This document shows, in pieces, positions 13,283 through 60,783 of a DNA stretch of 64,000 nt. The DNA is from Tubiluchus corallicola (taxonomy: Eukaryota > Priapulida > Priapulimorpha > Priapulimorphida > Tubiluchidae). The position numbers and the translations under genes were made by a program. The stretch spans positions 31,481-95,480 of the forward strand of contig JAQGDQ010000789.1 in the NCBI GenBank assembly GCA_030141605.1, in the 5' to 3' direction. The stretch's first letter is position 1, and every line of letters starts with the position of its first letter. The notes under the pieces are model-generated. The model was given only the letters and a program-made list of their open reading frames with translations, was not told the origin of the DNA and did not search any database.

Positions 13283-16200
13283 TTAAATAGAGATCCAGTG
13301 CCGTAGCTGAAAAAAATATAATCATGTTAAATAACATAAAGTAACACATCAAATAGTTTTGTGCAAAGTTGGATTATTCAGTAAACTCAATAGACATTGA
13401 TTTTCTGCATTTATTCTGTTATTTAACAAAATCTATGCTGCGAAGGCTTATTGGAACAGAATATAAACAGAAACAGAATATAATGACTACAGCAATTGCT
13501 TTTGTTTTATTCAGTTGGTACTAATCCATTGAGATGTTGCAAAGTTGCCGCTAGATGGCACCACCTACCTGAAATCTCTTCACAACACGAGTTTGCTGCA
13601 TGGCTTCATGTTCGTGTTCGGGAGTAATGCAGATAGCAAATCGCTGGTCAGGTGATCCGTGGGTTAGGAGGAACTGTTAAAACAGATAAAAAATTCCGTC
13701 GAGAAAAGTGGAAATTAATATCATAATGATACCGACAGCTGCAACCAGGCAATTTGTACTACAATAGTATGTAAGGTTCCCACAAAAATCTCCAATTAAA
13801 CAATAATTATCCCGTCAGTTACTCGTCTTCCAGCCATCTTTGGTTAGCAGACGTTGTTGCATAAGCTTTTCGGCGTAACTTGAAATGCATTAAGCTATAA
13901 ACTTGTAACTTTCACAGCCAAAACCTAAAGTATTGTGAAATTTCAACTTTGTAAGACGCTTGTTTCTAACTTCATTTAATATTAGCTCATACATTCAATC
14001 ATATAAATATTATTTAATAGTAGTCTAACTTTCGGCACATTGTTTCTGTACCCAACCCAACACGCAGTACCCAACCGCCACACAATACGTAATAAGAATT
14101 ACACCTGCAAACAGCAATACAGATGACTGTATATAGTGCCATCTATTTTATACGGATTCCACAGCACAATTCGAAAATTTGACTAGTTTTTAATAATGTT
14201 ATGGTATGAAATTTCGAATTCGAAAACTCCGAAAGGAGTCTAATAAAACGTAGCAGTTTTTCAAACTCAGGCTCATTTAAAACAAATTATATCTCGTCTG
14301 TTACTCGTCTTCCCGGAAATTTTTACAAAAGATACACTGAAATATACTCAGAAGAAATGTGTCAAGGTCAGCGCACACAAGAGGTAAAAATTTACAAACA
14401 AAAAACAAGAAACACTAAAAAAGTTGTTTTTGATAGTTCTGCAAACGTTTCGTGTTTTCCTCTGCTGGACATGCATACACAGCCACCCGCAATGCGAAGC
14501 AAAAACGCTCGCGAAAAAAAAACTATATCAGATCAAGTGATTCGTTTTTGGGAAACAGCCTAAGGTGGCATTTACCTGACATCCGGAATGCGTATGCGGA
14601 TGCGGAATAGATAAAATCGGTTTATATTGTTTTCAATGCACTCGTTTATTCAGACCTGATTATGCGTTATTTTTTCTGCAGGTATTTCCTGTTAATTTGT
14701 TACATGCAGCTGTTCCACAAGTGGATAACGAATAACGCATTCCGGATGTCTGGTAAACGCCCACACTTGACACTTGTTTTTTTTCTCTAGCGCTCATCAG
14801 ATGTTTTTATGTTGTGTTTCATGTTTTTCCTAACCGTGTGCGTTGACCGAGATTATTACCCCGCAATATTAACATAATCCATTGTAGCATTCTGTATGTT
14901 TTGTTTGTCATACCTTGAATGCAGCGTAAATTGGTATTATGATCACGGCAGAGAGGCAGACGAGCCATGCCACTGCATTCGCCCAAACTGGATAATAGTA
15001 GTGCTCGTAAGTCAGAGGAAAGTAACGGATAAAGCTCAGAATTGCCAAGAACTGAAATAAATCAATAATTGAAGGAGTCATATCAGAGTTAGTTATGCAT
15101 CGACTGATCAAAATGTAATATTCCGGATAAAGATAATAAACTATCCTACGTGTGGAATTAGAAAATGACTCACAATTATAAATCTTCTAAACCAAACTTA
15201 GCCGACGAAAGAAACTGGAGGCAAGGTCTTAAACTGATTTATCTCAATCGAGCTCAATCCCAACCTTTTCATATATCATTTCTTACTGTAAAGTTTGGTT
15301 TCCTGACAAACCTTTTTGATCTATTCACTCATTCGTTGGCTTATAATCTTGACATCAAAATGATAAAAAATTACTTTTACAATTTCAACAGTCCGTTTTG
15401 CACCAATTTGAAGATATGCAACATTTTTACAGCAGCACTTTGAAGGAGCGAAAGCTTGATCTCCAGGGAAGTAATTTATGCATCATTTTACCCCAAAATC
15501 TGATAATTAAGAAAAGGCACCATACCTGGATTTATCCTGTGCGTAGCTTATGTACACAAACTATTATTTACAGACATACAAACATGAAAAATTGGATCAG
15601 GTACTATAATTTGCAGTGTGCAATTGCAAGCTATAAATGACTACTAATAATTACTGTACTAAAAGTTGTACAATTTTATTTAAAATGGTAGCCTTCAAAG
15701 AGGCCAGAAGCTTCTCTAACCTAAAATTTTGAGCAATGCATTTAAAGGATGGCAGGATGATTTTTCATATACTACCCCATCTACAAGTACAGTAAAAAGT
15801 ATACATTTTAACACCAATAATACTACAAAAGCGTTTCTAATAATTAAATAATAGATTAAAATGGCGAGCCCAACTAGTGATGACATCACAAACTAACATA
15901 ATTTTAACTATCAAAAACATTCCTGAGCATGTTGCGCGTGTTGCAAAAGCGAAAATTTAAGTACAGTGCTACTGTAACAGATTCAGTGTGTTGTACTAAA
16001 ACTCGGCAAGATTTAAGATAAAAATTAAATTTTCAATTTTACCGCTATACTCACGTATGAGCTGTCGAACGTGTGCAGTTCGTCACAAACGAACACATCA
16101 GAACTGAGAGGTACTAACCACTACTGCCCGTCTAACTATGGAATGGCGAAATGCATGTAACAGAGAAGAACTATTGGCGCGAACGCGAAATTGGGTTTGT

Positions 16201-17321
16201 AAGGTAATAAATCTTTCACGTAAGGCATTCTTTAGAAAACAGTGTTTCCTTTCAATATTTTAAAGAATAGATTGTTTTGACCTACAGTTTAACATTGGGT
16301 CCAGCTTTGCTTTAATAAATAATTACTGTCTGCCACTAATGCCATCAGTAACACCAGTCAGTTTCTTGTAACATTGTTTTAATCAATTCTTTTTTCTTAA
16401 GTGCGTTCAAGTTGCAATTAGGCCACATTTCAAAGTTCTCCTTGCACGTTCGATAAGCGTTATTAGGCCTACTCTCTTCATAAGCACTTATAGGCATACT
16501 CTACATTTTATAAATAAATACTATTTGCATAGTGGATAAACACAGACAAACACAGCCTAACTCTATTCGTTTTTCCACTTACAAAAATAATGATAGGAGT
16601 CAACAACTTCCAGCATATCCTCCAGTATATCCCGGGTCTGAAGTTCATCATTGATTGAACGTCACAGCATAACTGTTCAATTCCTGCACAGAATATTACG
16701 CCTTATTAAACTTGAAACAGGAATCATTCTCTCACATTGACCCCTCAGTATTGTTCGTTTGTGAAAACTATTTTGTGTCTGGTCATAATTAACTCGACAC
16801 AAAAAAGTTGGCTTCTAATTTATGAAATTTTCAATTTATGTTTAATATGAATCAATTATCGGTCCTAAATTTCTATTAAATGAAGCTCCAAAGCTATTTA
16901 TAAACTTCTAAATCACAGTATACATTGTACGGAGACTACATAGGCCACATACACCCTCAGTTAGTCCGGCAACTCTCATAGCATTTAAATGTTTAAAGTT
17001 ACTTTTTGATTTCATTATAATTATTATAAGGAGGGTGCAATTTATGAAAGTTTACATTTTTATCTTTATTGGCTTTTACATGCACATAGTTTTTGCTTCC
17101 TTTTGATAATAATAAAAGTGAGACGTTTTTATGCTGCCAAAACTGCATAATAGGTGAAGGCGAGTTGTCTTTTGTTTTCGAACAATCACAATCCACGAGT
17201 GTATACTAAATTACTGATCCTTATATTTTGTTATATATGCATGTGTAAATTATATGTGTTTTTGTATTATGTATTCCATAAACTTGTAATTCGTAAAAAA
17301 ATCTTAATTACTAACTTACTA

Positions 17322-17409
<88 letters not shown>

Positions 17410-20400
17410 TCTTACTTACTTTCTAACTTACTAACTTACTTACTTACTCACTCACTCACTCACTCACTCGCTCACTTACTTGCTTATTTACTTACTCTCT
17501 CACTTACTTTTTACTTACTGGCTTACTTTTACTTATTTACTTACTTACTTGGTCATCTGTGTTATTCTCGGCTTGGGTCATCTAGACCGCTCTTTTATCG
17601 CTATATTTTCAGCTGTTGGACAACGAAGAAACAAAAATAAATGAAATTCACATACTTCATCATGTCCTTCTACTTCTAACAGAATTGCAAGAATCTTACG
17701 TTTTGGTTACAGTCGTTGACTTAAGCCTCACTATAGTTGCAATTAACTTGTGTACAGTTTATTTCTTTTTAGTACAAACCGGTCAAATTCACTATAAAAA
17801 TAAATCTCTCAAAAAGCGCACAACTGAACGCATTTCTTAAATTTTTAATTTGTAATTTTGGACTGAACACTATATACTGCTTTGCACCAAGTATAAAATC
17901 ACACTAGGCACGGATAATAGCTGAATGATTACCATGCGACCTCGGCTGTGAAATTAAGGAATGGCAGATCTGTTGATGAGTGACCACAGAGAAAGTTATT
18001 TTGGTAGTTTTATCTACCATCATACCCTTGGTTATTATATCAGTTAAGAAAGATCGTATACACATATTTTATGTACAACCTTTACAAATTCAATATCTAA
18101 CCTGATGATATTTGAGGATTATGTTTAATAATGAGACAGGTTCTGATCCCGCCATAATAAATAATCATATAATGTTAAAAAGGCAACTTTATTACAAATG
18201 CTAGGTGTCGACCTGCTAACAGTCAAGTTACTAGTTATAAAAGTCTTTTACCAGGACATAAATACAGAACACAGAATCTTTATGACGGTGCGAATTAGTT
18301 AAAATGTGAAAAGGGAAAGGATGACGAACTATATATTGGTTTCCGGCTAAATTCATGCTCCCGAGTTTTCTCTGGGAGTCATAAAACAAGATATCATCAT
18401 CAATAAAACAGCAGTGTCAATGAAACATCTGCTGTATTTTGATGGAAGCATTGAAGCTTTGGAACCCTGAAACATAGAAAGCTTGGTGCAGAATATTTTT
18501 TGACGCCTTTCTAGTCTCTAGCGAGTACTAGGTACTAGTTTTTCAACACATCATATAAAATTACAATAAATAAACGCAAAATTCCCAGGATTGTTAATGG
18601 GAAAGAGCGCCTGCAGTTGACTTACCGTAAAGCCAAGATGTCGCCACTAACTCGAAGAATACAGCAATAAACAAGGAGGCTCCGGCGGCATAAGAGTCCA
18701 TTAATGTTATTACAAAAACGCCACCCTATAAAATACTGCGCTATATAATTTGGAATAATGAAGGCTGTTTTATATCGCACATTAAATGTGCTGTTTCGAT
18801 TAAGTGCCTTCTCCTGTATCAGTATCTTGTTCATTATACTCTTATATGTAAACAAGCACAGGTCGAGTTCAGGACAGGAAAATCGCAAAATTCGGTCCCA
18901 AATTTTGCAGAACTTGTTTATTTGCGATAAATGGTCAGAAATAAACAGTAATTTTTTTCTGATCTTACAGAACGTAGACAATGCGTAGGCCTACGTCCAG
19001 CCTCCCATAATGTCAAAAATTAATTTTTAAGAACGCATCTTCCGTTATTCGACTCCGAAGATAATCGCTTCTTAAAATTGCCAGCTTAAATAAAATCTTT
19101 CAGCAAATGTCAAAAGTCTTCAAACAATTCCTTTTTCTACAAAATTTAAAAAAATGTCACTCAAAAAGTTTTGTCCACCAGAGATAATGCAGAAGACAAC
19201 GAATAACAGTTCAAGAAAACAAAATAAGATAGTGCACTTCTGAGACTTGCCATGGTCATAAGCATAAAGACGACAAAGTGTCTCTCAAAAATGTTTATTT
19301 TTCACAGGAGCTTTTGTCCTTCACGGATTTTTTCAGCTGAAATCTACTTGTATGGCCTAGATCTTGAAATATTTTGAAAGACATCTAAGATCTTGAAAGG
19401 GATCTAAGATCTTGAACGAGATCCAGGATCTTGAAAGAGATCTAAAATCCTGAAAGATCTTGAAAGACTTGCATGACTAGTCTTTTAATATCTAGACTAT
19501 ACAAGCAGATTTATGCTGACGAAGTCCGCGAAGGACGAATTAAAGCTCATGTGAAAACAAAAATTTTCGAATCTAAACGGGCACTTCTTTGCGATTCAGA
19601 GAAATAGATTAAACAGCTGGACAATTATAGGCATAATGTACATATGTATGTAGTGTCATACATAAGTGTCAATTTAGAGTGCGCCATAATTCATATATAT
19701 TTAGATTTTTCTATACTTACGTAGGTAGTACACGACAATCCTACAAGAAAAGTCACATAAATCATAATAAAGCTGAACACTTGTCGACTGTATTTCCATC
19801 GTTTTAGTAGCCAGTAAAGTTCATCCTGCAGACCTGTCAAAAGAGCCTCCATGCCACCAATCTATTTAAAAGAGAAAGTTTTGTCAATTGTAGAGCCGGG
19901 AGTCAAGGAATGTGCTTTACGACCGAAGTTTAGCAATACTGAGTCTGGTGAGTAAGTGGATGGCGGAAAACCAGAAAAATTGCTCTGCATATAACTCCTT
20001 GTTATTACCTCGTAGAAAGAAGATGTACGGACATTCTTGTGACTCGGAAATTACTATCGATAAAAAGCTAGGTTTGGCTCTTCACATATAAAAATCCACA
20101 TTAACTAGGTCCCATATTACTAAGAAAATTTCATGCAAAAAAACTGTCAACCGATTTAATTCTGGGATTTTTCGTTAAAAAGCCAGAATATGTCATGATT
20201 ATAGGAAAAACATTTCGTCATCCTCTGCCAATTGACATGAAGCTATTGTAGCCCTTATTTTAAGTGGCCATGTTAGGGTGAAAGCTATAAAAATCGTTGC
20301 AGTAGAACGAGAACCGCTCCCATTATTATGACTAACCTTCTAAGGCAAGCTGGCAAACGTAAGTTAACTATGATCAGATGTGAACACTTCCTCCTTCAAC

Positions 20401-20638: not shown

Positions 20639-23600
20639 CTAGTACTAGTACTAGTACTAGTACTAGTAGTACTAGTACTAGTACTAGTAGTACTAGTACT
20701 AGTAGTACTAGTAGTACTAGTACTACTACTACTACTACATAAGAGCTGACAACTTAAAAAGACAAGCAAAAGAGCAATAATAAACAAAAAGGAAAGCGCT
20801 CAAGTTAACTCTGAAAAGCTATATTATTACCTTATTAAAAGCTATACTGCTTCAGCCAATCTCCGACAAACATGAAGCCATGTACCATCATCTGGAAATT
20901 GAAGCAAATGTCACAAGTAACAAATCACAATTTTAAAAGACTAGATGGTAGCAGCAAACATGTGCATGAAGGACGAGAATCATATAGACGCTTGTTACTA
21001 CCATATAGTCTTTTAGTTCTGTGTCTGATGCTAGTTTGTCACTTGATGTATTTGATCAAATTTTCAAATGCCGGTATACAGCTTCATATTTGTTTGAATG
21101 TGGCTAAAGCAGTATAGCCAAAACTTTGCACAGTTTTCAATAAAGATTTGAAAACTTCACCTAGTTTTGGCACTTTGTCTTTTGGTTTATTGCCAAGTTA
21201 AGATTCCCAAAAAGGTACTCCAAGATAACTTTAGTATGTGTAAGAACAGTTACTAAGTTTTGTTTGCTATAAAATGTTTATTGAACGAAAATTATAAACT
21301 TCGCTATCATTTAAAAACCGAATAAATTTAATTTTAAAGCACCAAACTTACTGAACTCCCTAGTCCAAGCGTGAGCAACATTACAAAGAAAATAAGGGCC
21401 CAAAATGTTGATCCTGGCAAAGTAGCAAGTGCATCTGGCAGTACCGTAAATCCAAGTCCAGAACCTTAACAAAAACGGATCCTGGTTTTGAGTTTGAAAA
21501 AACAATGACTAAGTTAACTGTACTAACATTGTTTAAATAATCCTACTTAAAGCTTGTGAAACATACCAGCACTGACTACATTGGAGATGCGAACATTTTT
21601 TGTCCAGGCCAAGTATCCCATGTATGAAAAAACTACAAATCCACACAAAAAGCTCGTCAAACTGTTGACAATTGACGTGATAAGCATGTCTCTGAAATCA
21701 GCAAGAAAATAAACATGTAAACAATGCAATGTATTGCAGTAAGCACTAAAATCGGGATTTTCACTATCAATAGTTTGTAATTGCTCTCAAAAGGCAATTT
21801 GTCTACGGAACGGTTACTAACTGGCAAAGGAGATGAAAGAGATGCTTGGTACAGAAATGCACACATCAGGGTATTAAGTCCACACTAGGATCAAAACCGT
21901 TTCGGTGGTCACTCAAAAAACTGTAAAAAAACTAGTCAATATATTCTTTAGTATCGCCCTTGTTATTATAGTCTGTCATTAGTTAACGTTACTGCCAGAC
22001 CGAGTGTCATCATTATTGTTAGCATCGTAGACGCCACAGGCGTTTTGGTATCTTCGAATCGGCAAAGTCTCAGACAGGTCTTACGTGGTTAAAAACTTAC
22101 ATTGATCAAAATAGAATAAAAAAGCTATTCAACGAATAGTTTTCGTCATACGTTATGCCAGTGTTAATTGACCTGCTACTGTTAAACGACCTACATTCGC
22201 GTGTAAACTTATTATAACTGGGATTGGTGTCCACATCAGCAACAACATGTAATGAAATGTCATAACACCGACAAGCTTTGACAACGATAAAATTAAGCCT
22301 ATAGCAAGGCAAAACGCATAGTGTTGATCCCCTTAGGCATTGTGGATAACGGCAAATGGCCATGTATCAAACCACAGAATTATAATTTCTTCATTTTAAT
22401 GAAAAATTTCTTGAACTTACCTGTAGACATTGTTGTGAAATCTATTGAAGGACGCGTAGGCCGTGTATACACCAAATCCTGGTCCTATGGAGTAGAATAC
22501 TTGTGTTGCTGCATCAAACCATGTCTATAACAATAATTATTGTATTGTCGCACGTTAATTAGTTACAGGAGTTCTATTTCTATAGGCATTTATTTCCATT
22601 ATTCACCCTTTTAATACCCTTTACCGTGGGTATATAATAGTGTTAACAGTAAGTATCTTTCTTCTATTACATAGCCCTGAGTAACTTCACAGAAGAAAAA
22701 GCTGTTAATGACGAAATTGGGAAAAATTCACAAATATCAGTCTTTGAAAAGAGCGCAGCTTCAGATGGAGTAGAAGGAAAAGAAGAAAAAAGAACACAAT
22801 AGCACAAATTCTCTAATAGGTGGTTTTCGGTTTCTAACAGATAAACTGAGGGTTTGTAATGCAAAACTTAAGCACACATTTTGCTAATTAAGCACACAGG
22901 TAAAATCTGTAGGTGGCATTAAGCAGTAAGCAAAATCAAAACAATACGATAGTGAGTAAATGTGAAGACCGTTAAAAATATACGAATAAAGTAATATGGT
23001 GGTCAAACATTATCCAGGTACACCCATTATTTAAATTATCGTAATTACATAGAAGTTTTCCAGTTAAAAGTGATTCATTAAGAGAATAATAATTCTTTTG
23101 TACTACATTAACATTAATAAATTAACATTAACATTAACAGATTTGCGAAAAGGTTGCTTAACTACAGCTGGCTCGACAATGTGTCACTTAATGGTAGTGT
23201 TTGTTTGAGGTGTCAAAATTATTTTAAAATTACTAAAATCAAAAGTATGATACACCTTTCTTACACAAGGTTTATGCTTTTTCGATGATATATACATGCT
23301 GTAAATGATAAATTCCCAAAAGTTCGTGTTTAGTTATTTTTTGCACATTTTCTTTTTAATTTGAAGACATACAGCAATGCATTGTATTAGTACTGCGTCT
23401 TTTCAACTTCTTTGTTATTCTGCAATCAATATTCTAGACAGAACTACTGTTCCGCTTTTGCTTACCTCAAGCCGTAAGAGCTGCGTTGCATTTGGTGTGA
23501 GATAGTACAGGATACCATCTTTTGCTCCAGGCAATATAGCGCCTCGAATAAGCAGTATAATCAGCATAACGTACGGCGTCACTGCTGTTAGATACATAAC

Positions 23601-26600
23601 CTAACAAAATAAGATTTTGCGATTTTTTATTCAAATATCCTGTAGTTATAAAGGGAAAAGAAAGAAAAAATTACGACGTTCTAAACTGCTACTGCAGTTT
23701 GTTATTAGATGAAAGACAACCACAAGTAATTACTAACACAAATTTTTAGGCGTGTGTTTTACATATGGCACAGAAAAAACATAGCAAAGCAAGAAACACG
23801 AAGAAAATGCATGGAAACACTAAATCCCTGGCCTCAGTTAGACAACACAACAAAAACTGATAGAAATAATTTATTATTAAGGTTCTGTGGTTAATTTTAA
23901 ACCTTGTAAATGCAAACACTACAATGTTCGGAGATGTGTCAGAAAGAAAAAGAGACAGAAAGACAAAAAATATTAAAAGACAAAACAGAAAAATAAAGAA
24001 AGAAACAACAGTTATTGTTAAGAAAAAGAAATGTCTAGAAAAGCAACAACGAAGAAATGTTGTTGTACATAAGTAACCATCTTGTTATGACGTAGTTGAC
24101 AAGGCCTACCTTCCCAGATGTCTTAACACTTTTCAGCAATGCCAGAAATAGAAAGGTAAACACTAGCAAAGCACACAATGTCACGTCCCATTTCAAACCT
24201 CCCAAATCGTTTATTCCAGAGCTTTTGGGTATACCCAACACTTTGTGGCTGTAGCAAAAAAAGAATGGTTGAAGTTTGTGACGCCGGGTTTTACTTGTTG
24301 GTTTTCTGTTCTTTATTTAAACCAGATTTTCTTCAACAATTCCCAAACTACTACTCCTAGCCGAGCGGTGAGGTAGTACACAGATGTTAGTAGTTTAGAA
24401 ACTGAATAAGTTTCTCATAGGTACCTCTACGGGGCGTACCTTGAGATAAAAGATGTGGGTTCGAATCACGAGCGGGATCTTAAGTGTCGGCCTTAAGTTG
24501 CTGTTATTGTGTTTAGCTAACAAAGTGTGAACTATTCATAATATTTTCACTATTCAAATACTTTTTAAACGTTCACAAAGAAACGCACTCCAAGATACAT
24601 ATTTTGTGTATAAAGAACAATCAAAATTTAATGAACAAATTTGTGATGATATGATCAAAAAGATAATTTTCAAAAGCAATCAGATAAATACGAGGCAAAA
24701 CCCAACTAAAGATAAACAAATTAGATTCTAATACACTAGGTACTCACTAATTACCCTTTCCCTGGGAGGTGCACCGAAAAACCTGTCCACGCTGAGATGG
24801 TTCACTGTTCATTAATATCTTGGCATGCCACATAATCATTGGTGACGTCACTGGAAACGAAGTCTGCACTGTCCCGTCTATGAGGTAGGTGAGGTGACAT
24901 CGAGAATGGTTTAACTTCCTCAGAGGCTGGCGTCAGGTAAATTTATGCGGTGATATTCAGTCCAACCTTCCACATGAACAGTAGTAACTCCATAACGGCT
25001 TTTAAGCAAATTGTCCCAAGTATCCATTTTGCTGTAAATTTCGATAGTGCACAAAATGTATCACAACGTATCTAGACTGCTCGAAAACGTTACTGTCCTT
25101 TAACTGTAATCACAGCTATATAAAATGCTAAATGCCAAACTGCAACACATTACATAGTCCGCAGGTAACACGTACAGAGCAAACGTCTTTACTTCATAGC
25201 TATAGAGGTGCCGACTGAAACCGTCGAAATAAACTAGGACGACAACCTGGTTTCCAACTTATGCATTTGTTGAAGGACAGGTGTGTGGCTTTCCCATCCC
25301 GCAGTACTTACAGTACCTATTCGTAATACTAGCTACACATTCATGTATAGTAAACTGTTCATAACAAAGTTTTAGTAATCATATGAACCCGTGAAAGCAA
25401 TACTAAATTAGAAAGTCTGAAAAGTCCACTGAGACTCGAGACCAAGACCTACTGCTAGCCGTTGTACTAAAAGGTACCCTGATGTCTTAGACTCGGAAAT
25501 TTACATTATAATTTACACTAGAGATCTGTGAGCGACACATTTCATACTGCATCAAGACATAATGCAAATTCAATCGCTATGTTGGTAACAACAATAAAGT
25601 CAACACCCTGTCCTTGTAACTTTATATGCATCCACAAAATTTATCCAGACAGTTTAGTTTCGAATAGAAATTGTGATGCTGATAATGATGATGATGATGA
25701 TGACAGGTCATGCAAATTACCGCGGTGCGACCTTTTGCCGTGAGGATAAGCAATGACTTTGACATGAAGTGAACTAAAAGGAACTGGAGTGAATTGAAGT
25801 ATCATTAACTAATTAGATTACGACCGTGATTGCCAGAGTGTTTAAACTATTGTGGTTTATTTTTAACAGTCATTACCCATTGCGGGTAATGAGTTGCAGA
25901 AAGAAAGGAGACGCCGCAAATGGTTTATAAAGACTCTGGTAATCACGGGCATAATCTAACTGATTAAAGATATCGTTAGTTGCCAGCTAATGTGAGAAAA
26001 ATGAACTGATTTGTGTTTACAAGGATTAATTCTAGCAGAAAAATTTAAGAGCGCTTAAATTACTCAAGACTAGGGGGACAGGCGATAGGGAATAGATGAT
26101 ACATGTGTCGAAGGCTAGCGATGGTACCTTTCAATATAATCGTGACTTTGTCAGGGCTGACCCTACCACTAGATTAACTAGCCAGTCGCCTAGGGCGCCA
26201 AATTCTGAAGTAATTATTTAGTATTTAAGTTTAGTATAAGTAACAGCATAGTGTTCGTGAAATTCCTTAAGTAGCCAGCGCTAATTAAATGAAATGAACT
26301 ATTTGTGTATTTTCCTGTCAAAATGCATAATTCATCGATTCTAGCAAATGTCTTTCCGCGGCAAAACACGTTTTATTTTTGCTTTATCTGGTTTCCTTAG
26401 ATTATGTCATTTCTTACAAACGTTACAGACGCGTTATCCTTATTTATCCAGTTTCTACATAGTAGCACAAGCTGCAGATAGGTAATTAACTATAGCTAAT
26501 TAGTACACTATAATACATGCATACATACATATAATACGGTGTCAAATCGGTGTTGGCCGCGCCTCACCGATTTGAAGAATAGAGGAAAACCGGCTAGAAA

Positions 26601-29600
26601 TCGAATCCTGATTCCTTCTGGTGTCTCTGGGTTTGGCTTCGCAATGACATTATATGCGCGGACTATATGCTGTGTGTCAGCCTCGACTTGTCACAGATGC
26701 GAACTCAATTTAGTATTTAATTTTCAATTAACTAATTGACTATTAGTCATTATTTTGATTTGTATTTTTAAACATAATTTTTCATTGGCACTAAATATTG
26801 CCGTGGTGACACCTGATAACAAAATTTGCAGTTATCGCTTAATATTTTGCTACCGCTATATGTTTTGTATGGAATTAGGTCACTTAGCTTCCTCAGTTTA
26901 ATGCAGTGGTTTTTCACACTAGATAGCAGGAATAGAGCTTAAACAACGATCATAGACAAATGGGTGTTAAAAACAACGTTTTCCTCAAATGCCATGATAG
27001 ATTTGTTGATAGAAATGAACAGATTAACTGTGACTGTTCTTGACTAATGTACATTATGTTTACCATTTTTGTGTATATGTGGATCGACTATGGGACTACG
27101 AGTATGACAAAAATACAGATTGTAAAGTTAAACTATGTTTTCATCAATTGATTAACAACAGCTTTCAGTCATTTTTCATTTATTCTCAAACTCGGCCAAG
27201 CACGGTCAAGTGCAAAATGGCTTAGTTTCAGCAGGATAATAAGAAAAGCAAGACAATAAACAAGTCTTGTTCAAATATAAAAGCAGTTCATACTCGAAAA
27301 ATTCTTTTCCTGGCGATGTTTGCTGTGCCGAAAAATTCGTAGGCAAATTTCCATTCGCGCAGTAGACAGTATTCCACGGGTGTCCACAAGTGGCCCAAGG
27401 CAAATTAGCAGTGAAAGATGAGAAGAAATAGTAAAATGCCCAGCTGACGATGATGTTGTAGTAGAACGCTACATAGAATGATATCAAACATGAGGCAAAC
27501 CCAGCGCCTGTAAAAGATTTGGTTTGATTGACTGACTGATTTTTTTTATAGATTTAGTCGATCTGTACTAAATATACTTTTAATTAAAATGGAAATGTAT
27601 AGTACAAACTAAAAGTTTACGGATTTTAGATTTTACATAAATATAAAATAAACTGTATATAATAGGAGAAAGGGAAAAGTCCTTCCAGGTTAAAGTCTCT
27701 TAGTAGAAGAGTTTCAGTAAATTCAGCTAAGTTTAACACCTTGTCTCACTAGTTATTTCATAATCAGAGTCACAATTTTGAACAGGCTTGAAAATGCCGA
27801 CATTATGCATTTTGCGCATTAAATTTATGGCGGCTTGTAAAATTTGATCGGATTTCTGCAAAAAATCTCATTTGAACTGGCAACAATATGTTCAGGCAGA
27901 GCATGTCTTGACAAATCTGTTTCTAAAACGTAATTTGCTAACATCCAATTTGAATAATTTACTAAATAATTTATTAAATTTTACCAAAATAAAAAGTGCC
28001 ATTAAGCAAATACATTGTGCTATATCTTCGTAAAAATGTGAGTTTTTCTAACTACTAAGCGATATTGTTTTTATTATTTAGTTATGCACACCTAAACTAT
28101 ATATATATATGTATATGTATAGTTTGTGGGACATTTTCTTTGCTCAGTGAAACCTATAAATTAATCATACCTTTAAATAAGGGGCATAAGGTATTCCAGA
28201 TCCCAAGGCAACCTCTTCTGTGAAACTGTCCAATAATCAACTCAAGATACATCAATGGCATGCCAATCAGAAACAACATCAACAGATAAGGAATTAAAAA
28301 TACAGCTGAAAAGCAAAAGAATAAATTGATGAAAATAAATGCATGTTGCTAAATCGCGCAGGCAACAGCATGCACACATAAATTTTTTCTAATGGGCAGT
28401 AGCATGCACACCTAAACTTTTCCTAGTAGGCAGCAGCATGCACACCTAGACTTTTCCTAATGGGCAGTAGCATACACATCTAAATTTTTCCTAATGGGCA
28501 GCAGCATACACACCTAAACTTTTCATAATAGGGGCAGCATACACACCTAAACTTTTCTTAATAGGGGCAGCATACACACCTAAACTTTTCCTAATGGGGA
28601 GGAGCATACACACCTAAACTTTTCCTGATAGAGAGCAACTAGCATTCTTCGACAAGGTTTTGAGGAGTATATAAGGTAAGCGTTTTATCAGCATTGTTGA
28701 CTTCCTCAGCAACTCAGCGAAATAAAATTTCTACAATAGAAAGAGAAGATAAATTGAATCTAAAACATTATCGTCTCTTGCTGTTGTTGAAATTTTATTT
28801 TAATAGGACTTTCTGAGGAAGTCAACAGCGTTGATGAAACGTTCATGATCATCAATAAAGTTCGTTAACAGCACAATAATCCCAGTCTTCATTAATGAAG
28901 AATAATAAAATAATCCTAAAATAAACCATAGTAACATTAACCATTTTAGATGAGGCACGTACCTCCTCCGTGTATGTAGCACAGAAACGGAAATCTCCAG
29001 AAGTTTCCCAAACCAACAGCGTAGCCAATAAGAGACAAAAGCGATTCCAACTGCGTGTCCCATTCTAATCTTTCGCCCGTTTTTTCTCGCTCAAGCTCTG
29101 CCCTTTTTCTCTCTTTTTCTGGGACGAAATAGAACGCCTGTCCAAGGGCAACGGAATAAGTTGCTGGTGGCTGCACGGAACCAAAAATATTCAAAAATTA
29201 ATTATTTCGAGTGTTTTCAACGTTCTTTATCTGTAACTTAGCAGTATATTACACGTGTACAAAGCACTTTATTTTGAACTGGCCGGTAATCGGTTAATTG
29301 AAGTCAAATGTTATTTAAAGGAAAGGACAAGAAACTTAGCATGTTGGGTTTATTTTACCGTTATCACTAAAACCTAGAAAAATTTAACAAAGAAATTTGC
29401 AAAAACCTGTACGTAAAGCATAAATTTTACACCAGTACAAAGATCTTCAGGTCCAGTGGCAGCCGCCATTCACTTGAAAATTGTGACGTAACAGGTCGAA
29501 TATCGTCACTTTTCGTGAACGCATCGTTGCTTTCCGTAAGAGCACGCTGCATAAACTAATTCATACTTCTACAGCCTTCCTAATATTTGCTTCCAGAAAT

Positions 29601-34881: not shown

Positions 34882-37800
34882 TCATATTGAAATGTAATGT
34901 CTCGCCTGAAAACACAAACATAAACATATTAAAAAACTGAATATAGGGTGAAAAGTAAAAAATACATTTATATATTTAAATAACTACTAACTTTTAATGT
35001 TTGGTTTGGCCTAATAGTTTAAATATGGTTAACCAGAAAGCATTTATTGTAACCAATTGTTATTTTAAAAAGTTAGGCCTAGTTGTTTCATTGTTGTTTG
35101 ATAAGTAACAAATGAATTACTATATTGACTTTAATTTATCATCTTATTTCTCTGTGTTTTTACTGTAGCCTCGTCTTGAGCCTTTGTAGAAATAATTTTT
35201 AAGCTACCAAGTAAAAAATAAATTCTTACACTTGTCACTCATTACTCCTTCTTAATGAATGACCACAGATGGCAGCACATAAATTGAATCACTCTAATAG
35301 CTTACTCGAAATATTTAATGAATGTATATTTAATGAACATACACAATGTATTATATAATTTTGAAAACATCGTTCATTATGCCATTCACCGGGACATAGT
35401 GCAAGTACTAAAATGCAGCCACTGCATTTATAGGGATAAATTTTTCACACTTATCGATTCCATGTCGTAAGAACAGATGGCGCCACTTACCTGAAATCTT
35501 TTCACCACACGTGTTTGTTGCATGACTTCATGTTCATTTTCAGGTGTAAGACAAAGAGCCAACCGCTGCTCAGGCGTCCCTTTTGTTGTTAAATACTGAA
35601 AAAAAGTTGAAATAGACATAGTATTAGCAAGTGCAAGCCTCTCTTGTGAACTGCGGAACAGTGACTTTTTCAATATAGCGTGAAATACAAAGGTCTCTTT
35701 TATTGTGAGATATGGGAAATCACTGGCCCGCAGTTTAAAAGGGAGGCTTGCACTTGTTAATCAACTGGTCAATTAACGTTATAATTTTTTATTTATTTCT
35801 CGCAAAATTCAGTTTATATGCTGAGTACACAATAAAGTGAATCATGCTTCACACAAGTGTGAAAAGCTTGATGTATAGATCTTTTTTACATTGAAATTAA
35901 AACTTCGCATACAGCCATACTTTAGTCTCTACTCAACATCATTATCATGTATAAAATATAAAAATTTTAGTATATCCAGCTTTTTATTACTGTTTTATAC
36001 CTTTTAGACGTTTGTCGCTTAATTGTTTATTGCGACGTTAAAGTATGTCAAGCTACAGTAAGAAGACAAGAATGTGCAGCGACGGTCGACCATTCTGGCA
36101 GGTAAGCCAGTTTACCTACATAGAAGTGAGGCACTTTTCACATGCATTTTGTGCAGAGGTAATGCATTTCCAGCTCACATAAAAATATTTAAAAAAATGA
36201 ACAAAACTGGAAGTTTGTTATTGTTGCAGTCATTAGTTACTCGTTTGTGTAGTAACTCTATAAAGAGGTCTATTTCACCGTGTTGCTGGTCTCATTCATG
36301 TAAAAAGTTTTTAACAATTTTTCATAACGTCATGATAAAGTTCTGTATTGTGAATTTTTATGAAAAAAACGGATTCGTGGCAATGGTAATTTAAAGACTT
36401 TAAAGATTTAAACGAACTGACCGACTGACGGAAGCGCATTATATGAAGCCTAGCAGACGAGCTAGGTCCATGCCTACAAACACGAGTTTGTACATTTTAC
36501 AAGACAGCAAAATACGCATACATGCGTGTATGCAAATAACCCAATGCTTCACATTCCGGACTAGTTTTTTTGCTCAAGCTTTTTAGCTGAAAAAATACTG
36601 CGTAGAAAAGGAACTAAAGTTTCTTTTAAGCTTCTTTACCTCTATTTTAAAATTTCCCATTTTATAAGTTCTGTTTCGCTAAAAAATCTGCAAAGCCAAT
36701 GCGAATAAAGTTCTTTACGTTAACCGAGGTGTATAGTTTTTTTATAAACAACTAATAAACTTAAATTGCTGACCCTACCTTGTACACTGCATGAATTGGT
36801 ATTAAGATAGCCGAGGAAAGACAAATTAGCCATCCAAGTGCATTAGCCCACTTCGGATAAGTATAGTCTTCATATGTAAGTGGCGCATAGCCAATAATAC
36901 TGGCTAATATAATGCACTGAAACAAAATGTACTCAAATTAACGCTTAATTATAGGGCCATTATTAGAAATAAGTCTAAGATTTAATGTGTTGAAAAACTT
37001 CTGCAACCTTCGTGTAACTAATAACAAAAAAAATAAGTAAAGATCCGCATTACTTTGTAAATATTATATAAATATAGTAAAGATCCAGTATAAGATCGCT
37101 CAGATTTCACTCTTGGCTTATACTTCTTGACAAGAGGACACAATGTAGAAATATTCAATACGCAAAAAACACTTATTACTGCTGCCACAAATATGGACTT
37201 TCGTATTTTTGGTACTAAGTCTAAGTCACACTTCTTAAAGTGTGAACATTTCGTACATTCATGTTCCAATGACTCCTTTCTTTTTCGTTCTTTTTTCAGT
37301 GTTGTTCTTTTCTTTCGATGATTTATTACGTCAGCCTTTTACTTTTGCGTTGAATGTTTTCTTTCCAAACACACGAATGTTTGCTTGGTCAACTATGTTC
37401 ATTTGTGTGCTTTTGTCCAATTGTTCATCCTTCTTATATGAGTTTATTCATTTGTTATTTGTTTCTTTGTTCGCTGTTTGTTCACCCATTCGTTACTTCA
37501 TTTATTTGTTTATCTGCCAGCTAGCTAGTTATTTAACATGACAAAAGAAATTTGATGTTCTTCTGCATGTATGTCTGAAAATGTGACTGTAAGTTTTGTA
37601 AAAACATTTTCCTCGCTTTCAGCAGTTAAGTTAATAATTATAACTATAATATAGATTTTCATAAAACTTACAAAAATAAATATGGGACTCAAGAATTTCC
37701 AGCATATCCTCCAGTATATCCCAGGTCTGAAGTACATCATGGTTTGGACATCTCTACATAAATTCTCAATTCCTACACACAAAAACATAAATTGTACACA

Positions 37801-38716
37801 TACCTTTTAATATAATAACAGCGTAAATCGTCTATATTACTTTTTCAAACAATAAAAAAGACGTCAAGCAAATCAGGACTTGAACTCCAGACCTTGCGCT
37901 AAATACATACTTGCTTTAAAAGTTCTCAGATTACAACACTATCAACTCGTGCGGGCGTTTCATTGATGAAAAATGGCGTTATTTTCGCCTAGTTCCAATT
38001 CTTTGAAATTTAGTACACACGCCATAAAAATTAATGAAAAGTATAGAATTGCAAAAGCCACAAGGACGAAAAACAGGTATATTACCGCATGCTGACGTGG
38101 TTTTTATCTGCTTACCATAAAACCAAGATATTGCTACTGTCTCGAAGAACACAGCAATTAGAATGGATGTCCCAGCAGAGAACGAGTCCAATAAATGTAC
38201 TACGTAAGAACCGCCCTAAAAAGGAAAATGCCAAATAATCTTAGTAATGTAATATGAAGATGACGACGATAATGGCGGTAACGATGATGGCAGTGGCAAT
38301 GACAACGATCACGACCATGATGATGTTGATGATGATGACGACGAGAATGGCGATAACGATGATGATGAAAGTGACAAACGACGACGATGACGATGATGGT
38401 TATGATAATGATGATAGTGATTGTGTTGGCAATGATGGTAACAACAATGACGATGATGATGATGATGATGATGATGATGATAATTGTGGCGATGACGATG
38501 ATAATGACGATGTTGATGACGATGGTGATGGTGATGATTAAGATGATGATCATGATGATGATGATGAAGATAACGACAATGATGATGATGATGAAGATCA
38601 CGACACTGATGCTGATGATGGTGATTGTGACGATGACGTAGATTTTGACGATGATGATGATAATGATGATGGTGGTGATGGTGATGATGATGATGATGAT
38701 GATGATAATGATGATG

Positions 38717-38748
<32 letters not shown>

Positions 38749-38778
38749 GATGATGATGACGACGACGATGATGATGAC

Positions 38779-38811
<33 letters not shown>

Positions 38812-41800
38812 AAGATGATGGTGATGATGAAACTAATGACAATGATGATGACGATTGTGGTGATGATGATGGTGATTATGACGATGATGAAGATTGTGAC
38901 GATGATGACGGTATTGACAATGATGATGATACTTTGATAATAACAACAAACACCACAATGATATACCCGGCAATGACAACATCTAAGATAATAATGACGA
39001 GAAAGTAATGACGATGACAGTCATGACTGAGGTGACAATGACGATGACGACGACGATGATGATTGTGTTTATGAAGTCGCTTATCGCGATAATAATCAAT
39101 GATAATATTTATAAGTATAAAAAAACTGGAGTAGTGATTGTTGTATATCCAAAATGGCGCTGCAATTTAATGCAACATAATTTGCAACAAACACTGATGA
39201 CTGATCTCAAAATGGCGATGTTATTTAGGAAAACACTCACATATGTAACGCAAGAGAAGCCCACGATGTAAGCGAAGTAAATTATAATAAAGCTAAACAC
39301 TTGTCGACTGTATTTCCATCGCTTTAACAGCCAATGCAGTTCATCTTGCAAGCCTGTCAGAAGAGATTCCATACCTCCCATCTAGAAAAGAAAGTCGTTC
39401 CCGTTGAACACAAAAAATCTTGCAGCAATAATTGTTGTCGAGTGGTATTTAATGATTGGTCTTTCAAAGCTGGAGCTAAGAGAACAAAAGTGAAGAAAAA
39501 AGAAGGAATGAGACGACAAGAAAAGGAAAGTGGAGAGAAGAGTAGAGTAGAAAGAGAGAAGAGAAAAGAAGGAAGGCAAGGCAAGGGAAGGCAAGGGAAG
39601 AGAAGAAAAGAGAAAAAAGGAAAAAGGAGGGAAGTGGAGGAGAGAGGAGAGGAGAGAAAAACAACATGTAAAAAGAAAGAAAACATTTATTTATCGTCGC
39701 TCGTTTAGCAAACAACATTAGTAATAAGAGCTATTTAGCGACTTACAACAAAACAGGCAAGGACACAACGCACAAACAACAAATAGTGTGTAGATGTGTA
39801 TCCTAGTATTGGCCGCCGCTTGATTCGAGCTGAAAACTGCACTTGCATCCCGCAATATAGACCACTAAAAAGTTATAGATATGACAACTATATAGACAAC
39901 TTGGTTACCCGACACCCAGGACTGAAGAGTGGTGAAGAAGACTCAAAACAATCGTTGTCTTCATGCCTTCATATTTATACAATGTCATCTTTGTAACGGC
40001 ATTTTCTTGTGGCATAATGGCGGAATTTATATAAAGTGAAAAAGTGCTTTTGTCGTGGAGCGCAAAATACCTGGCACAAGATTGAGCTGCATAGTTACTA
40101 TTAAATTATTTCATGATTATGCAGACCCATGCAGGTTGAAGGAATCACATTCATTACCTCAGTGAGACTTGCTTGCAAACTTCTATGAACTTACCGCACT
40201 ATCTAAACCAAGAGTAAGCAACATTATGAAGAATATAAGTGCCCAAAACGTAGATCCAGGCAAGGTAGCAATTGCTTCGGGATACACCACGAAAACCAGT
40301 CCTGGACCTGTGAAAAGAAAAACGATAGAACCATAGAACATGAAATAAAACTAGAGTTTCATACGTTTCTTTATCAAAAGTAACTTTCCCCGTAGAACAA
40401 TCATATCTCCCTTGTTCTATCGTTCAGTCAAGCATTTGTTCTTGTTTCTAAATGGCCTACTAATGGGAGTACGCGATTGTGGGCCCAACGCGGCTTAGCT
40501 CTGTGTTTTCTGTTTGTTGTTCTTTAGTACAATTGGTCGCTTTTCCGATGAACAACAAGATAATTATAACTCGTTTAGATTAAAGGCTTTTTAACTCATT
40601 GGCTCACAACTTAGCGGGTACCCAATCAAAACTTCGGGTGATCTTTCAATAACTGATTTTTCAAACATAACCCCGCTTTTGTCTAACCCACACACGAACA
40701 AATCCCAATTATATTAAGAGTTATTAACTACTTAATGAGCATTAGCATAACAAAATGCTTAGAAACATAAACGCTGGTCTAAGAAATCAACTGACAACAA
40801 AAGCATCATTAGGTCTAAATGCACTGGAAATGGAAATCATGAGGCCTTTATTTCACATAACACATTTACAATAATTTTTAGTACAAAAATACAGTGAAAA
40901 GGCCTACAATGAGCATAATACAAATTATTTAATACTGTTTCTGTACAAGAAAAGGCTCACACTATGTTTGCTTAAGGATCAATGGAAATGTACTGAACCA
41001 TGAACTGGACAAGACTGGAGACAGTGAATGCATAAATGGAGCTCGGATACCGACAAATGATGGTCTGTTCGATTAAGTAGAAGTCTTTTGTACTTTGTTT
41101 GGCATTACAACACCACTTAAGTTTTACCACCAAGAGCATATGTGGTGGTAACCGCTTTTTACCGTATTTTACTGCTACAAAATAATTCATAGGGATGTTG
41201 ATTTAGAGCCCGAAAAAAAATTACAAGAGCACTCACTGACAGGACAAAAAGTAACCACAGTCTCAAGCTGTATGTTCGTAGAACGAACAAAAAAAGTTTT
41301 GGGTTTTTCTTCTACGTGTTTTTCAAGTGTGGAACTCCTTACCCAGTTCAGTAAATGCACCTTTGGTCACTGCAAGCAACTCTAAACTTTTCAAAAATAG
41401 ATTGAAGTTTTTGAATTTTGATAAATGGTTTGTGTGATAATCGTATGTAAGCAGCTTGTCTCTTTACGTCTCCGCCCACATTCATGTTTTCAGTGTTTTA
41501 TAGTCCATTTTTAATCTATTTTTAAAACGAATGTGAAATAAAATAAAAATAAAATAAAGTGTCTAAAAATGTGTACAGATGTCTATGCCTACAGAACATA
41601 TATCATACTATGTTATAAGGAGTAAACGCCTATGGGTTGAGAGTATGTCAACACCGCTAACCACTTACCATCGCTGGCCACCTTGTCAATAGTGACATTC
41701 TGCGAACTTGCCATATAACCTAAGTAAGAGAAAATGACGAAACCAGAGAAGAAACTCGTCAAACTGTTTACACTTGCCGTGATGAGCATATCTCTGCAAT

Positions 41801-43976
41801 AGAATAAACGCTCGAAGTATGTAATAATTCCTCTTTTTATATTTAGAATATATAAGACGTATAAGATGATTTTGTAGCGAAATTGTAGTTTGTTTAAAAA
41901 TTATATTACATGCCTTGTGTCTTCGTTTATTAGCTGTAACTTTAACGTAGCCATCAGATATAATACATAAAATAATAATGTAGGCTAGACTGACTACAGT
42001 GAAAAAACAGGAACCAACAAAACAAAAATTACTTGCAAATATGTTGGCTTTATCATGCCAGTTTTTACCCGCCACTTGATTACTCGTTGTTATCGACGCA
42101 TTAACAGACTTTGGTGTAAAATAAAACATTGAAAATGTTTTAAACAAGTTGGAGGAGTGATCAAGATGTGTATTTGTAGCACCATCTGTGTGTTTTTCAG
42201 TTTTTAAATGGTTTCATCTCCGATACTGCTTCTGGTATTTACATTTCACTGATCGATGTTATGCCTTTAAAGTTTAAAGCGATATCAGAAGTCTCTGTCG
42301 GTTTAGTATCGCATCTTAGAGAATTAACATCGATAACGAGATGAGTTGCGGTCCACTTAAGGTGTGTCCTGTCGTTAGATGTTCAATTTAGACTCTGAAG
42401 ATTAAAATTTTGTTTCATGTTTGGACAATTGCATGCATGAGTTTACGTTTTTAGATATTGCACATAAAAAAACGTTAGACATCTATAACACCAGATCCAA
42501 GGTGCACTGAGCACCAGCACACACAATCTTAGTACCAGAACCAGCACCCCCGGTCTCAGCACCAGCATTCTCAACCTCAGTGCAGAAAACTTCATCACCT
42601 GTACTCACAGTGCTCCCAATGAATTGTAATTCATACTACTCCGATGAAAGGAATTTTTTATACTCTTTATCGCGACTGTGGTGAATACAAGAGCTGAAGT
42701 TCTGTGACCGAGGTTGTGGGTGCTGGTGCTGAGAGCACCTGGGTCGGGTATTGTAATGTGGTCAAACGTCATGTGATGCTGACCATCGTCGCACCATCAT
42801 CAGTGGCAGTACGGTTGTTGTTATCAACAATGTTATTGTTCTTCAATGGGTGTTTTGTATGTTATGAAATAACGTAATGAGCTCACCTGTATACATTGTT
42901 GTGGAATTTATTGTAGGAAGCATAGGCAATGTGTACACCAAACCCTGGCCCAACTGAATAGAAAATTTGTATTGCTGCATCTATCCACACCTGTATCGGA
43001 CAATAATTACTATTCCTTTAACAATAATCAAACACTAATATAGTTCCCATAACTTGAGTCATTACGTAATTAGCCAAAAATCTCAGGAACGAATGGCTAG
43101 CAACTGTTAGTGTGTTCACACTGATTGCGTTCACTGCAGATACATATCACCATTGCATCCGGTTTATGTTCACTCGGGTCAAACTGATTAAACTGAGAAC
43201 AGTGCTTACAACACCCGACTCCCATTTACAGTACTTATACACTGTGTACAAAAACCCAGTCCTTTTTACACTGCATATAAAAACCCTGGCTTGTTTACAC
43301 TTCATATAAAAACCGAGTCCTGTTCACACTGTTTGTAAGAAGCGAGTTATGTTTAAACTATTTACAAGAAGCGAGTCCTGTTCACACTATCTGCAAATAT
43401 GAATTACCTTGAGCACTTTCAAACAATAATTGATTATACCAGATATTAACAAAAAATAACTTACCTTTACTTCAATTTCTTTAAACGAAAGCATGTCAAA
43501 AATACAAGTTAAATGTTTCAAAGATGTAGTTTTGAAAACTAATACTTATTTTATTCTAAAATCTGTTTCACACAGTCTTCTGAAATTAGTAGTCAATGTA
43601 CTGATAATTTGATACAAAAACGACTAAACACTTACTTCAATGTGTAACAGTCGTTCAGCATTTGGTATGAGGTAGTATTTGATACCCTCTTTTGCTCCTT
43701 CCAACATGACTCCTCTAATAAGCAGTATAAGTAACACAATGTAGGGCATTAGTACGGTAACGTAAACAACCTGCAACAATATAAACAAGTAAGATGCGGT
43801 GTAAATGCAAAAAGGGAAAGTAAAAACGAGAAGGGTAAAAAAGACGAGTAACACGAGAAAAGGAGAAAAATCAAGGCAAAAAGGAAAGCAGAAAGCAAAA
43901 AAAAGAAATAAAGAAAGAAAGGAGAAAAAAGAAAGAAACAAACAAACAAAGAATGAATTAATGAATGGATGAATGA

Positions 43977-44048
<72 letters not shown>

Positions 44049-59781: not shown

Positions 59782-60783
59782 CCGTAAAACGGGGTGAGTT
59801 CGCCACTTTTTAGGGGTATTTTTTACGTTTCCTGCCATAGCAAGAGAATTACCCAACCGATTTTCTTAGTTCAAGCTTTATATTGCCTTTCGTATGAAAC
59901 ACTATCGTGGGGTGAATTCGCCACTAACAATTTAACACTGTGTAATGCCATTCTAGGCAGCTGAAGTTAACTGGTTGTGATTGGCTGGTTGGGGGTGAGT
60001 TCGCCACCCTATGAAAAAATTATGAAAAATGTCTAGTTTTAGCCGAATTATTGAAAATGTTCGATGGTGGGACGTTTTCAATAAGGGGCCCTACGTTGGC
60101 AAGGAAGGCTTGAACGTCTTGTGCACTGATCTTCGCGCGGGCGTCCTTGACGTTGCCAGCCACTCTGAAAACCAGATTGTTCCTTCGTGCGAATGATTTG
60201 ACAAAGTCTATTCCAGGGGTGTTTGCCTTGAATCGTCGTTCCTGGATTCCCTTCACGTCGAGAACACTCTTAATCAGTAGTCGGAGATCGATGGCAGTCA
60301 TTGGGAACCCCCACTCAGCGGCCACTTGGAGTGTTGGCGATTTCGTGCTCCTCGGCGGCGGAGAACACTGGCTGACCTCCGGTCTTCCGCGGATGACTTC
60401 GTGAGAGTTTGTCAGAAAGGGACTTTCTTGGAACTCCGAATTGCCTCGCCGCTGCGCTGACTGTCCTGTTGGTATTCTTGACGGCATGTAGGGCAGCTTC
60501 CAGAGCTTCTGGGGTATAATTTTGGTATCTATGACCCGGTACAGGGGTGCAGGTGCGTGGCATGTTAAGTAGCAAGAAATAGTAGACAAATAATATGTAG
60601 TGCAGAATGGAATACTTCTAGTGCGAATTGAAAGAAGATAACTGTCGCAAACTGTTTATAATGACGGTGATCATGATATCTGTTCATTAAACACTGAACA
60701 ATAGTTACAGCAAACACTACAATGGCCATTACGTAGGGGGTGGCGAACTCACCCTCGGGTGGCGAACTCACCCCGTTTTACGG
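59782..60783. mobile_element. Complete pogo-like DNA transposon, internally deleted
   Basis: Perfect 25-bp terminal inverted repeats, opening CCGTAAAACGGGGTGAGTT at 59782-59806 and inverted at 60759-60783, flanked on both sides by TA (59780-59781 and 60784-60785), the target duplication of the Tc1/mariner/pogo superfamily. The core GGTGGCGAACTCACCC recurs inside the ends: at 59907-59924, 59991-60010 (both inverted) and 60736-60754, giving five sites with the two ends. It is markedly richer in GC than its surroundings. The encoded transposase is a remnant. Confidence 0.9.
60020..60563 (-). pseudogene. Pogo/Tigger-like transposase remnant (DNA-binding half only)
   Basis: The ATG at 60561-60563 opens a psq-type helix-turn-helix domain (YTPEALEAALHAVK, VSAAARQFGVPRKSLSDKL), then GGQPVFSAAEEHEIA. 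A frameshift near 60320-60335 moves the continuation (VAAEWGFPMTAIDLRLLIKS, FVKSFARRNNLVFR, ENVPPSNIFN) into another frame. In this family the last block is followed by YDET and a DDE/D catalytic domain of some 200 residues; here it stops after a few unrelated codons, so the nuclease domain has been deleted. The element could move only with a transposase made elsewhere. Confidence 0.85.

What the first reader, a model, noticed from the sequence alone, without database searches (positions are those of the whole stretch)
21352..29170. Tandem catecholamine-transporter paralogue that has lost both key aspartates (TM1 and TM8)
In transporter A, exon 2 reads [12 protein letters not shown] where its neighbour B reads [12 protein letters not shown]. 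The aspartate is the residue that binds the amine group in SERT, DAT and NET, and glycine is the residue found there in GABA, glycine and proline carriers. Exon 9 of A reads LGLGSS where B reads LGLDSA, so the aspartate of the Na2 site is also gone; from memory, glycine transporter 1 has LGLGT here. Everything else I can check in the ion and substrate sites (TM1 Asn, TM2 Tyr, TM3 Tyr, TM6 Gln/Ser/Phe, TM7 Asn/Ser, TM10 Asp) is intact, and no stop or frameshift appears in 616 codons. This suggests a monoamine carrier that switched substrate and ion coupling after duplication.
Basis: partly seen in the sequence, partly recalled or inferred. Interest (0 to 1): 0.87.

Follow-up and report, generated by a model that had tools for sequence, protein, structure and literature searches.

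The report
Monoamine transporter copy lacking both aspartates
An animal genome carries two neighbouring copies of a noradrenaline/octopamine-type transporter gene, and one intact, fast-changing copy has lost the two acidic residues that normally grip the amine and a sodium ion, so it may carry something else.

Summary
On the minus strand two SLC6 genes lie in tandem: B (47106-35491) and A (29170-13283), with the same exon layout and 70% identity (411/585). A has Gly where B has Asp in TM1 (GGT/GAC) and TM8 (GGG/GAT), two base differences each. A and B pair at SH-aLRT 100 within the protostome NET-like group that holds the Limulus octopamine transporter, apart from the invertebrate DAT group. 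Of 214 aligned homologues, 213 have the TM1 Asp (the exception matches GAT1) and 214 the TM8 Asp, so both losses fall on A's branch. A has 593 open codons, GT-AG introns, a complete chloride site and a DAT-like C-terminus. It evolved 2-7 times faster than B, but of 21 near-invariant functional-site columns only the two Asp changed. TM1 now reads YAVGLGN, as in GABA/glycine carriers; the roomy TM6 Phe remains. Best reading: an amine transporter that moved to another substrate, perhaps a medium or aromatic amino acid. The ion-coupling claim is weaker: GlyT1 shares this TM8 Gly and couples 2 Na+. Function is untested; the organism was not identified.

The parts
28963..29170 (-). A exon 2, TM1 ([12 protein letters not shown]; Gly53 of my numbering = hNET Asp75)
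28171..28305 (-). A exon 3 (TM2, chloride-site Tyr)
27294..27507 (-). A exon 4 (TM3, large extracellular loop)
24110..24248 (-). A exon 5 (TM4)
23466..23600 (-). A exon 6 (TM5)
22421..22524 (-). A exon 7 (TM6, Gln/Ser/Phe of pocket and chloride site)
21567..21691 (-). A exon 8 (TM7, Asn/Ser)
21352..21464 (-). A exon 9, TM8 (LGLGSS; Gly389 = hNET Asp418, Na2 site)
19721..19861 (-). A exon 10 (TM8-TM9)
18626..18725 (-). A exon 11 (TM10, Asp)
16583..16683 (-). A exon 12 (TM11)
14914..15051 (-). A exon 13 (TM12)
13569..13673 (-). A exon 14 (C-terminal tail)
13283..13306 (-). A exon 15, LRHWISI and stop; Lingula homologue P0123 ends LRHWVSI
35491..47106 (-). Paralogue B, exons 2-14 (47106-46854, 45737-45603, 45043-44833, 44358-44220, 43770-43636, 42990-42887, 41793-41669, 40307-40195, 39381-39241, 38215-38116, 37772-37672, 36916-36779, 35595-35491); Asp at TM1 and TM8

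Best explanation
A is a working SLC6 transporter gene that arose by tandem duplication of a protostome NET/octopamine-type amine transporter. After the duplication A lost the amine-binding Asp and became a carrier for a zwitterionic substrate. Shown: gene structure, pairing with B, both Asp lost on A's branch, intact reading frame, intact chloride site, purifying constraint on average. Inferred: with Gly in TM1 the amine has no carboxylate partner and Na1 loses one ligand; a carboxylate on the substrate would fill both roles, as in LeuT and GAT1. Because A keeps the TM6 Phe (hNET F323) where glycine carriers have Trp, the cargo would be a medium or aromatic amino acid (Leu/Phe/Tyr/Trp/DOPA type), not glycine. 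Chloride dependence is expected to remain. Na2 is expected to be weakened but usable, as in GlyT1, which also has Gly there.
For: A/B 411 of 585 identical, dN 0.19, dS 1.21 (NG86), matching exon layout. Tree: A+B at 100 SH-aLRT, A tip 0.62, B tip 0.088. With eight single outgroups more changes fall on A each time, from 77 against 15 (Lineus) to 48 against 23 (Drosophila DAT). Splitting dS evenly and dN by these ratios gives an omega of about 0.21-0.27 for A and 0.04-0.10 for B (my arithmetic). In simulated neutral drift of B's coding sequence 0 of 2000 runs stayed stop-free at each of 0.2, 0.4 and 0.6 substitutions per site. Of 10 columns that separate 213 monoamine rows from 5 GABA/Gly/Pro-type rows, A has the latter letter at 3, all in TM1 (Y, G, G), B at none. 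Functional-site columns changed in A: 2 of 21, both Asp; elsewhere 19 of 120; B changed 0 of 21 and 6 of 120. Carboxylate beside the TM1 Gly and Na1 in GAT1/LeuT: PMC10352132 (passages). W482F in GlyT2 admits Ala and Leu: PMC8602798 section 5.
Against: No transcript, uptake or expression data. TuriSERT shows that Gly at this site does not exclude an amine. Two of the three TM1 changes are not specific to amino-acid carriers: Tyr occurs in 9 and Gly in 2 of 213 monoamine rows, and human SERT has Tyr95. At the other 7 discriminating columns A did not take the amino-acid-type letter (6 unchanged, 1 a third letter). A also departs at 19 other near-invariant columns, including the NGGGAF motif (HGGAVF), which fits general relaxation. 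GlyT2, PROT, GAT1 and two Actinostola units keep the TM8 Asp, so the TM8 Gly is not a general feature of amino-acid carriers.
Confidence: 0.45

Rival explanations
1. A still carries an amine, held in a different pose without the TM1 Asp, as described for bacterial TuriSERT.
For: TuriSERT has Gly22 at the Asp98 position; 5-HT displaces its substrate and its amino-acid precursors do not, and putting Asp back changed little (PMC10707687, passages). A keeps much of the amine pocket: Val148, Tyr152, Phe323, Ser419, Ser420, Gly422-Met424 and Asp473 of hNET.
Against: TuriSERT is 34% identical to hSERT and also differs at Tyr95 (Ser19) and Asn368 (Asp262), where A does not; [quoted passage not shown]
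Confidence: 0.2
2. A is not a coupled carrier but a leak conductance, a partner subunit of B, or a binding-only protein; losing Na1 and Na2 ligands uncouples transport.
For: D421N in the second sodium site of DAT gives a sodium leak and an inward-facing bias (PMC12987629, one passage). A has both Asp changes plus 19 others at near-invariant columns.
Against: GlyT1 works with Gly in TM8. The chloride site, the Arg81/Asp473 pair and the other Na1/Na2 residues are intact.
Confidence: 0.2
3. A is an early-stage pseudogene drifting without function.
For: A evolves 2-7 times faster than B and differs at 37 of 199 columns that are at least 90% conserved, against 15 for B.
Against: 593 open codons, GT-AG introns, C-terminal motif kept, pairwise dN/dS about 0.16; neutral drift would have produced stops. 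Very recent loss of function cannot be excluded: at 0.05 substitutions per site 2.3% of simulated runs were still stop-free.
Confidence: 0.06
4. The TM1 segment was copied into A from an amino-acid SLC6 gene by gene conversion.
For: Three switches to the GABA/Gly/Pro letters lie within six residues, and Ala70 of A matches the two Actinostola units; exon 2 has the lowest A/B nucleotide identity of the blocks compared, 0.652.
Against: Neighbouring letters Phe57, Ile66, His67 and Val71 of A match none of the five amino-acid-type rows; exons 13-14 are nearly as divergent (0.667).
Confidence: 0.04
5. Assembly or base-calling artefact.
For: None seen.
Against: Two base differences at each of two codons in separate exons, inside an otherwise coherent gene.
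Confidence: 0.02

Closest known systems
Protostome NET-like / octopamine transporters (e.g. Limulus P0128, Lineus P0122)
   Same: Nearest relatives by tree and score; pocket largely alike; C-terminal motif kept in A
   Different: Fetched rows have Asp at both sites; A has Gly at both
Glycine transporter GlyT1 (SLC6A9)
   Same: Gly at TM8 (LGLGT); Gly at TM1 (recalled for GlyT1; seen for GlyT2, PROT and GAT1)
   Different: A scores higher to NET (619 bits) than to GlyT1 (483 bits) and has the TM6 Phe, not Trp
TuriSERT (bacterial)
   Same: Gly in place of the amine-binding Asp in a SERT-like protein
   Different: Bacterial, chloride-independent, 34% identical to hSERT; A is a duplicate inside the animal amine clade
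Human DAT D421N
   Same: Loss of a TM8 Na2-site Asp in a monoamine transporter
   Different: A disease variant with Asn; A is a paralogue with Gly and a second loss in TM1

Membership tests
SLC6 / sodium:neurotransmitter symporter family (PF00209) | Pfam SNF model over the 12-TM core | tested here: met
   E 3.3e-190, 633.7 bits (cut-off 27), profile 1-522 of 524
Monoamine clade (SERT/DAT/NET/OAT) by descent | Groups inside the monoamine clade | tested here: met
   Tree of 43 rows, outgroup two cnidarian SLC6 units, one SERT-like row; A+B nested with protostome NET-like rows (quick method, SH-aLRT only)
Monoamine transporter by residue | Asp in TM1 binding the amine | tested here: not met
   Gly, codon GGT; 213 of 214 aligned rows have Asp
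Monoamine transporter by residue | Asp in TM8 at Na2 | tested here: not met
   Gly, codon GGG; 214 of 214 aligned rows have Asp
Glycine transporter (GlyT) | Trp in TM6 restricting the pocket | tested here: not met
   A has Phe (hNET F323); Trp in GlyTs from PMC8602798 section 5
Chloride-dependent SLC6 | Tyr/Gln/Ser/Asn/Ser chloride site | tested here: met
   All five present in A; the site list is recalled from SERT structure
Functional amine or amino-acid transporter | Measured uptake | not testable with these tools
   No expression or uptake data available

The most novel reading that the evidence does not exclude
A natural conversion of an amine transporter into an amino-acid carrier: after a tandem duplication, one copy undid the defining Asp and regained the YAVGLGN TM1 of GABA/glycine carriers plus a GlyT1-like TM8, keeping an aromatic-sized pocket, so that neighbouring genes of common descent now carry an amine (B) and perhaps an aromatic amino acid (A).
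Probability: 0.33. Interest if true: 0.72.

Novelty: new variant of a known kind. Interest (0 to 1): 0.52.

Why it matters
[quoted passage not shown] An intact exception beside a normal sister copy is a natural experiment: swapping two residues between A and B would test directly how SLC6 carriers choose amine or amino acid, and what the TM8 Asp does for sodium coupling.

Tried and rejected
Alternative TM1 exon carrying Asp: only two WRFP-bearing frames in the window. Third SLC6 copy: none found with A and B as probes. Non-monoamine descent of A: rejected by tree and scores. Pseudogene: disfavoured. Naming the organism: B's best hits are nemertean, brachiopod and mollusc at 55-58% (its top-listed row, the Actinostola protein P0121, is a two-unit gene model at 42% and was set aside). 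The linked HDAC1/2 gene gives 90% to ticks and 88% to Lingula (the top-listed bat row, 82%, was set aside), so the phylum is undecided. No hit to A above 50% identity is among the 120 listed (1640 passed, only 120 are shown, so others may exist). The last exon of B was not found; one weak candidate ([11 protein letters not shown] at 35421) was left open, and exon 1 was not settled for either gene. No tRNA genes (bacterial settings) or Rfam families at gathering score in the window. Structure prediction was not tried: its description admits the window's own translations, and I took a spliced product to fall outside that. Literature: nine searches; in the titles and abstract starts listed I saw no animal monoamine-clade SLC6 lacking the TM1 Asp, but most subscription journals are not held. 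Five papers were opened, four by passages only, one by passages and one section.
Full report
Observation. The region is eukaryotic and the genes lie on the minus strand. Exon by exon reconstruction gives gene A from 29170 to 13283 and gene B from 47106 to 35491. In A the 13 introns between exons 2 and 15 are all GT-AG and in phase, and 586 + 7 codons are open. Exon 15 (LRHWISI, stop) restores the C-terminal end also seen in Lingula (LRHWVSI). Exon 1 with the start codon was not settled for either gene, and B's last exon was not found. The finding's interval covers only exons 2-9 of A.

The two losses. Mapped on human NET (letters of 8hfe_A), A has Gly for Asp75 and Gly for Asp418. The other residues listed for Na1 and Na2 and the five chloride-site residues are unchanged (the site lists are recalled from SERT/NET structures). 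Pocket differences shared with B are A145S, G149A and F317Y; differences in A alone are F72Y, A77G, I481L and the TM1 Asp, and at L319 A has Ile and B Val. B alone differs at S420 and A476. The codons differ from B at two bases in each case (GGT/GAC, GGG/GAT).

How unusual. Two protein searches gave 217 homologues; 214 were aligned after dropping three by length. TM1 is Asp in 213 of 214, and the exception, P0098, reads like GAT1 in TM1 and TM8. TM8 is Asp in 214 of 214. These are the best-scoring listed hits only, so they under-sample distant relatives. Among other SLC6 types, sequences show TM8 Asp in GlyT2, PROT, GAT1 and two Actinostola units and Gly in GlyT1.

Descent. In a 43-row tree A and B are sisters at 100 SH-aLRT. 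They lie with arthropod octopamine/NET-like and spiralian NET-like transporters, apart from the invertebrate DAT group (quick method, no bootstrap; where exactly they join within that group is not resolved). Since B and the outgroups have Asp at both sites, both losses are on A's branch. A's tip is 0.62 and B's 0.088, a ratio of 7. Tajima-type counts with eight single outgroups put more change on A each time, by ratios of 2.1 to 5.3: 77 against 15 with Lineus, 74 against 14 with Lingula, 48 against 23 with Drosophila DAT.

Constraint. Pairwise dN/dS is about 0.16 (NG86) or 0.19 (YN00). Apportioning by these ratios gives about 0.21-0.27 for A and 0.04-0.10 for B; this is my arithmetic and assumes dS splits evenly, while block dS ranges from 0.4 to 3.5 and is saturated in several exons. 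Simulated neutral drift of B's coding sequence left no stop-free copy in 2000 runs at 0.2 substitutions per site, and 2.3% at 0.05. A therefore spent most of its history under selection; a very recent loss cannot be excluded.

Pattern of change. A departs at 21 of 140 columns that are at least 98% conserved, B at 6. Counted with the bird protein removed, A changed 2 of 21 functional-site columns and 19 of 120 others, B 0 of 21 and 6 of 120; I chose the functional set from recalled SERT/NET structure knowledge. So general acceleration is real, the pocket is not hit more than the rest, and within the pocket the only near-invariant residues lost are the two Asp. Of ten columns that separate 213 monoamine rows from five GABA/Gly/Pro-type rows, A shows the latter letter at three, all within six residues of TM1; B at none. 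Two of these three letters also occur in some monoamine rows (Tyr in 9, Gly in 2 of 213), so only the Gly for Asp is diagnostic.

Mechanism. In amine transporters the TM1 Asp neutralises the amine, while amino-acid transporters have Gly there (PMC10707687, passages). In GAT1 the substrate carboxylate sits next to this Gly, and the amino-acid carboxyl bridges Na1 and a TM3 Tyr (PMC10352132, passages); A keeps that Tyr. Pocket size is set in TM6 by Trp in glycine carriers and Phe in LeuT, SERT and DAT; exchanging Trp for Phe lets GlyT2 take alanine and leucine (PMC8602798 section 5). A has Gly in TM1 and Phe in TM6, the LeuT-like combination, hence the prediction of a medium or aromatic amino acid. 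For TM8, GlyT1 shows that Gly is compatible with 2 Na+: 1 Cl- coupling, whereas DAT D421N leaks sodium (PMC12987629, one passage). Ion coupling can therefore not be read from the sequence.

Limits. No transcript, no uptake data, no whole-genome search (the tool did not complete), organism unnamed. The counter-example TuriSERT keeps an amine reading open. I put 0.45 on the amino-acid-carrier reading and about 0.9 on the sequence and descent facts.

Noticed in passing
4271-9422 (+): Class I histone deacetylase gene (HDAC1/2 type), nine tblastn matches, convergent with the 3' end of transporter A; best credible protein matches are ticks (90%) and Lingula (88%).
   Followed up: partly
45602 (-), intron after B exon 3: B has a GC-AG intron (AAAG|GCAAGT) where A has a GT donor at the same place.
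   Followed up: no
35490-29480 (-): No match to A's last exon (LRHWISI) was found downstream of B; B may end by reading into the intron, use another exon or have lost the C-terminal motif.
   Followed up: partly
60315-60617 (-): Open frame with a Psq-type helix-turn-helix (PF05225, 29.7 bits), perhaps a transposon remnant.
   Followed up: partly
28361-28626; 30922-31231; 38317-38930; 17303-17550: Tandem arrays: a 34-base unit in A's intron between exons 2 and 3, a 32-base unit between A and B, a long ATG array in a B intron and a CTTA array in an A intron.
   Followed up: no
28963-29170 and 28171-28305 (-): A's NGGGAF motif after TM1 reads HGGAVF; the Asn and the third Gly are invariant in 213 of 213 monoamine rows. 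Both units of the cnidarian protein P0121 read NGGASF, sharing the Ala.
   Followed up: partly
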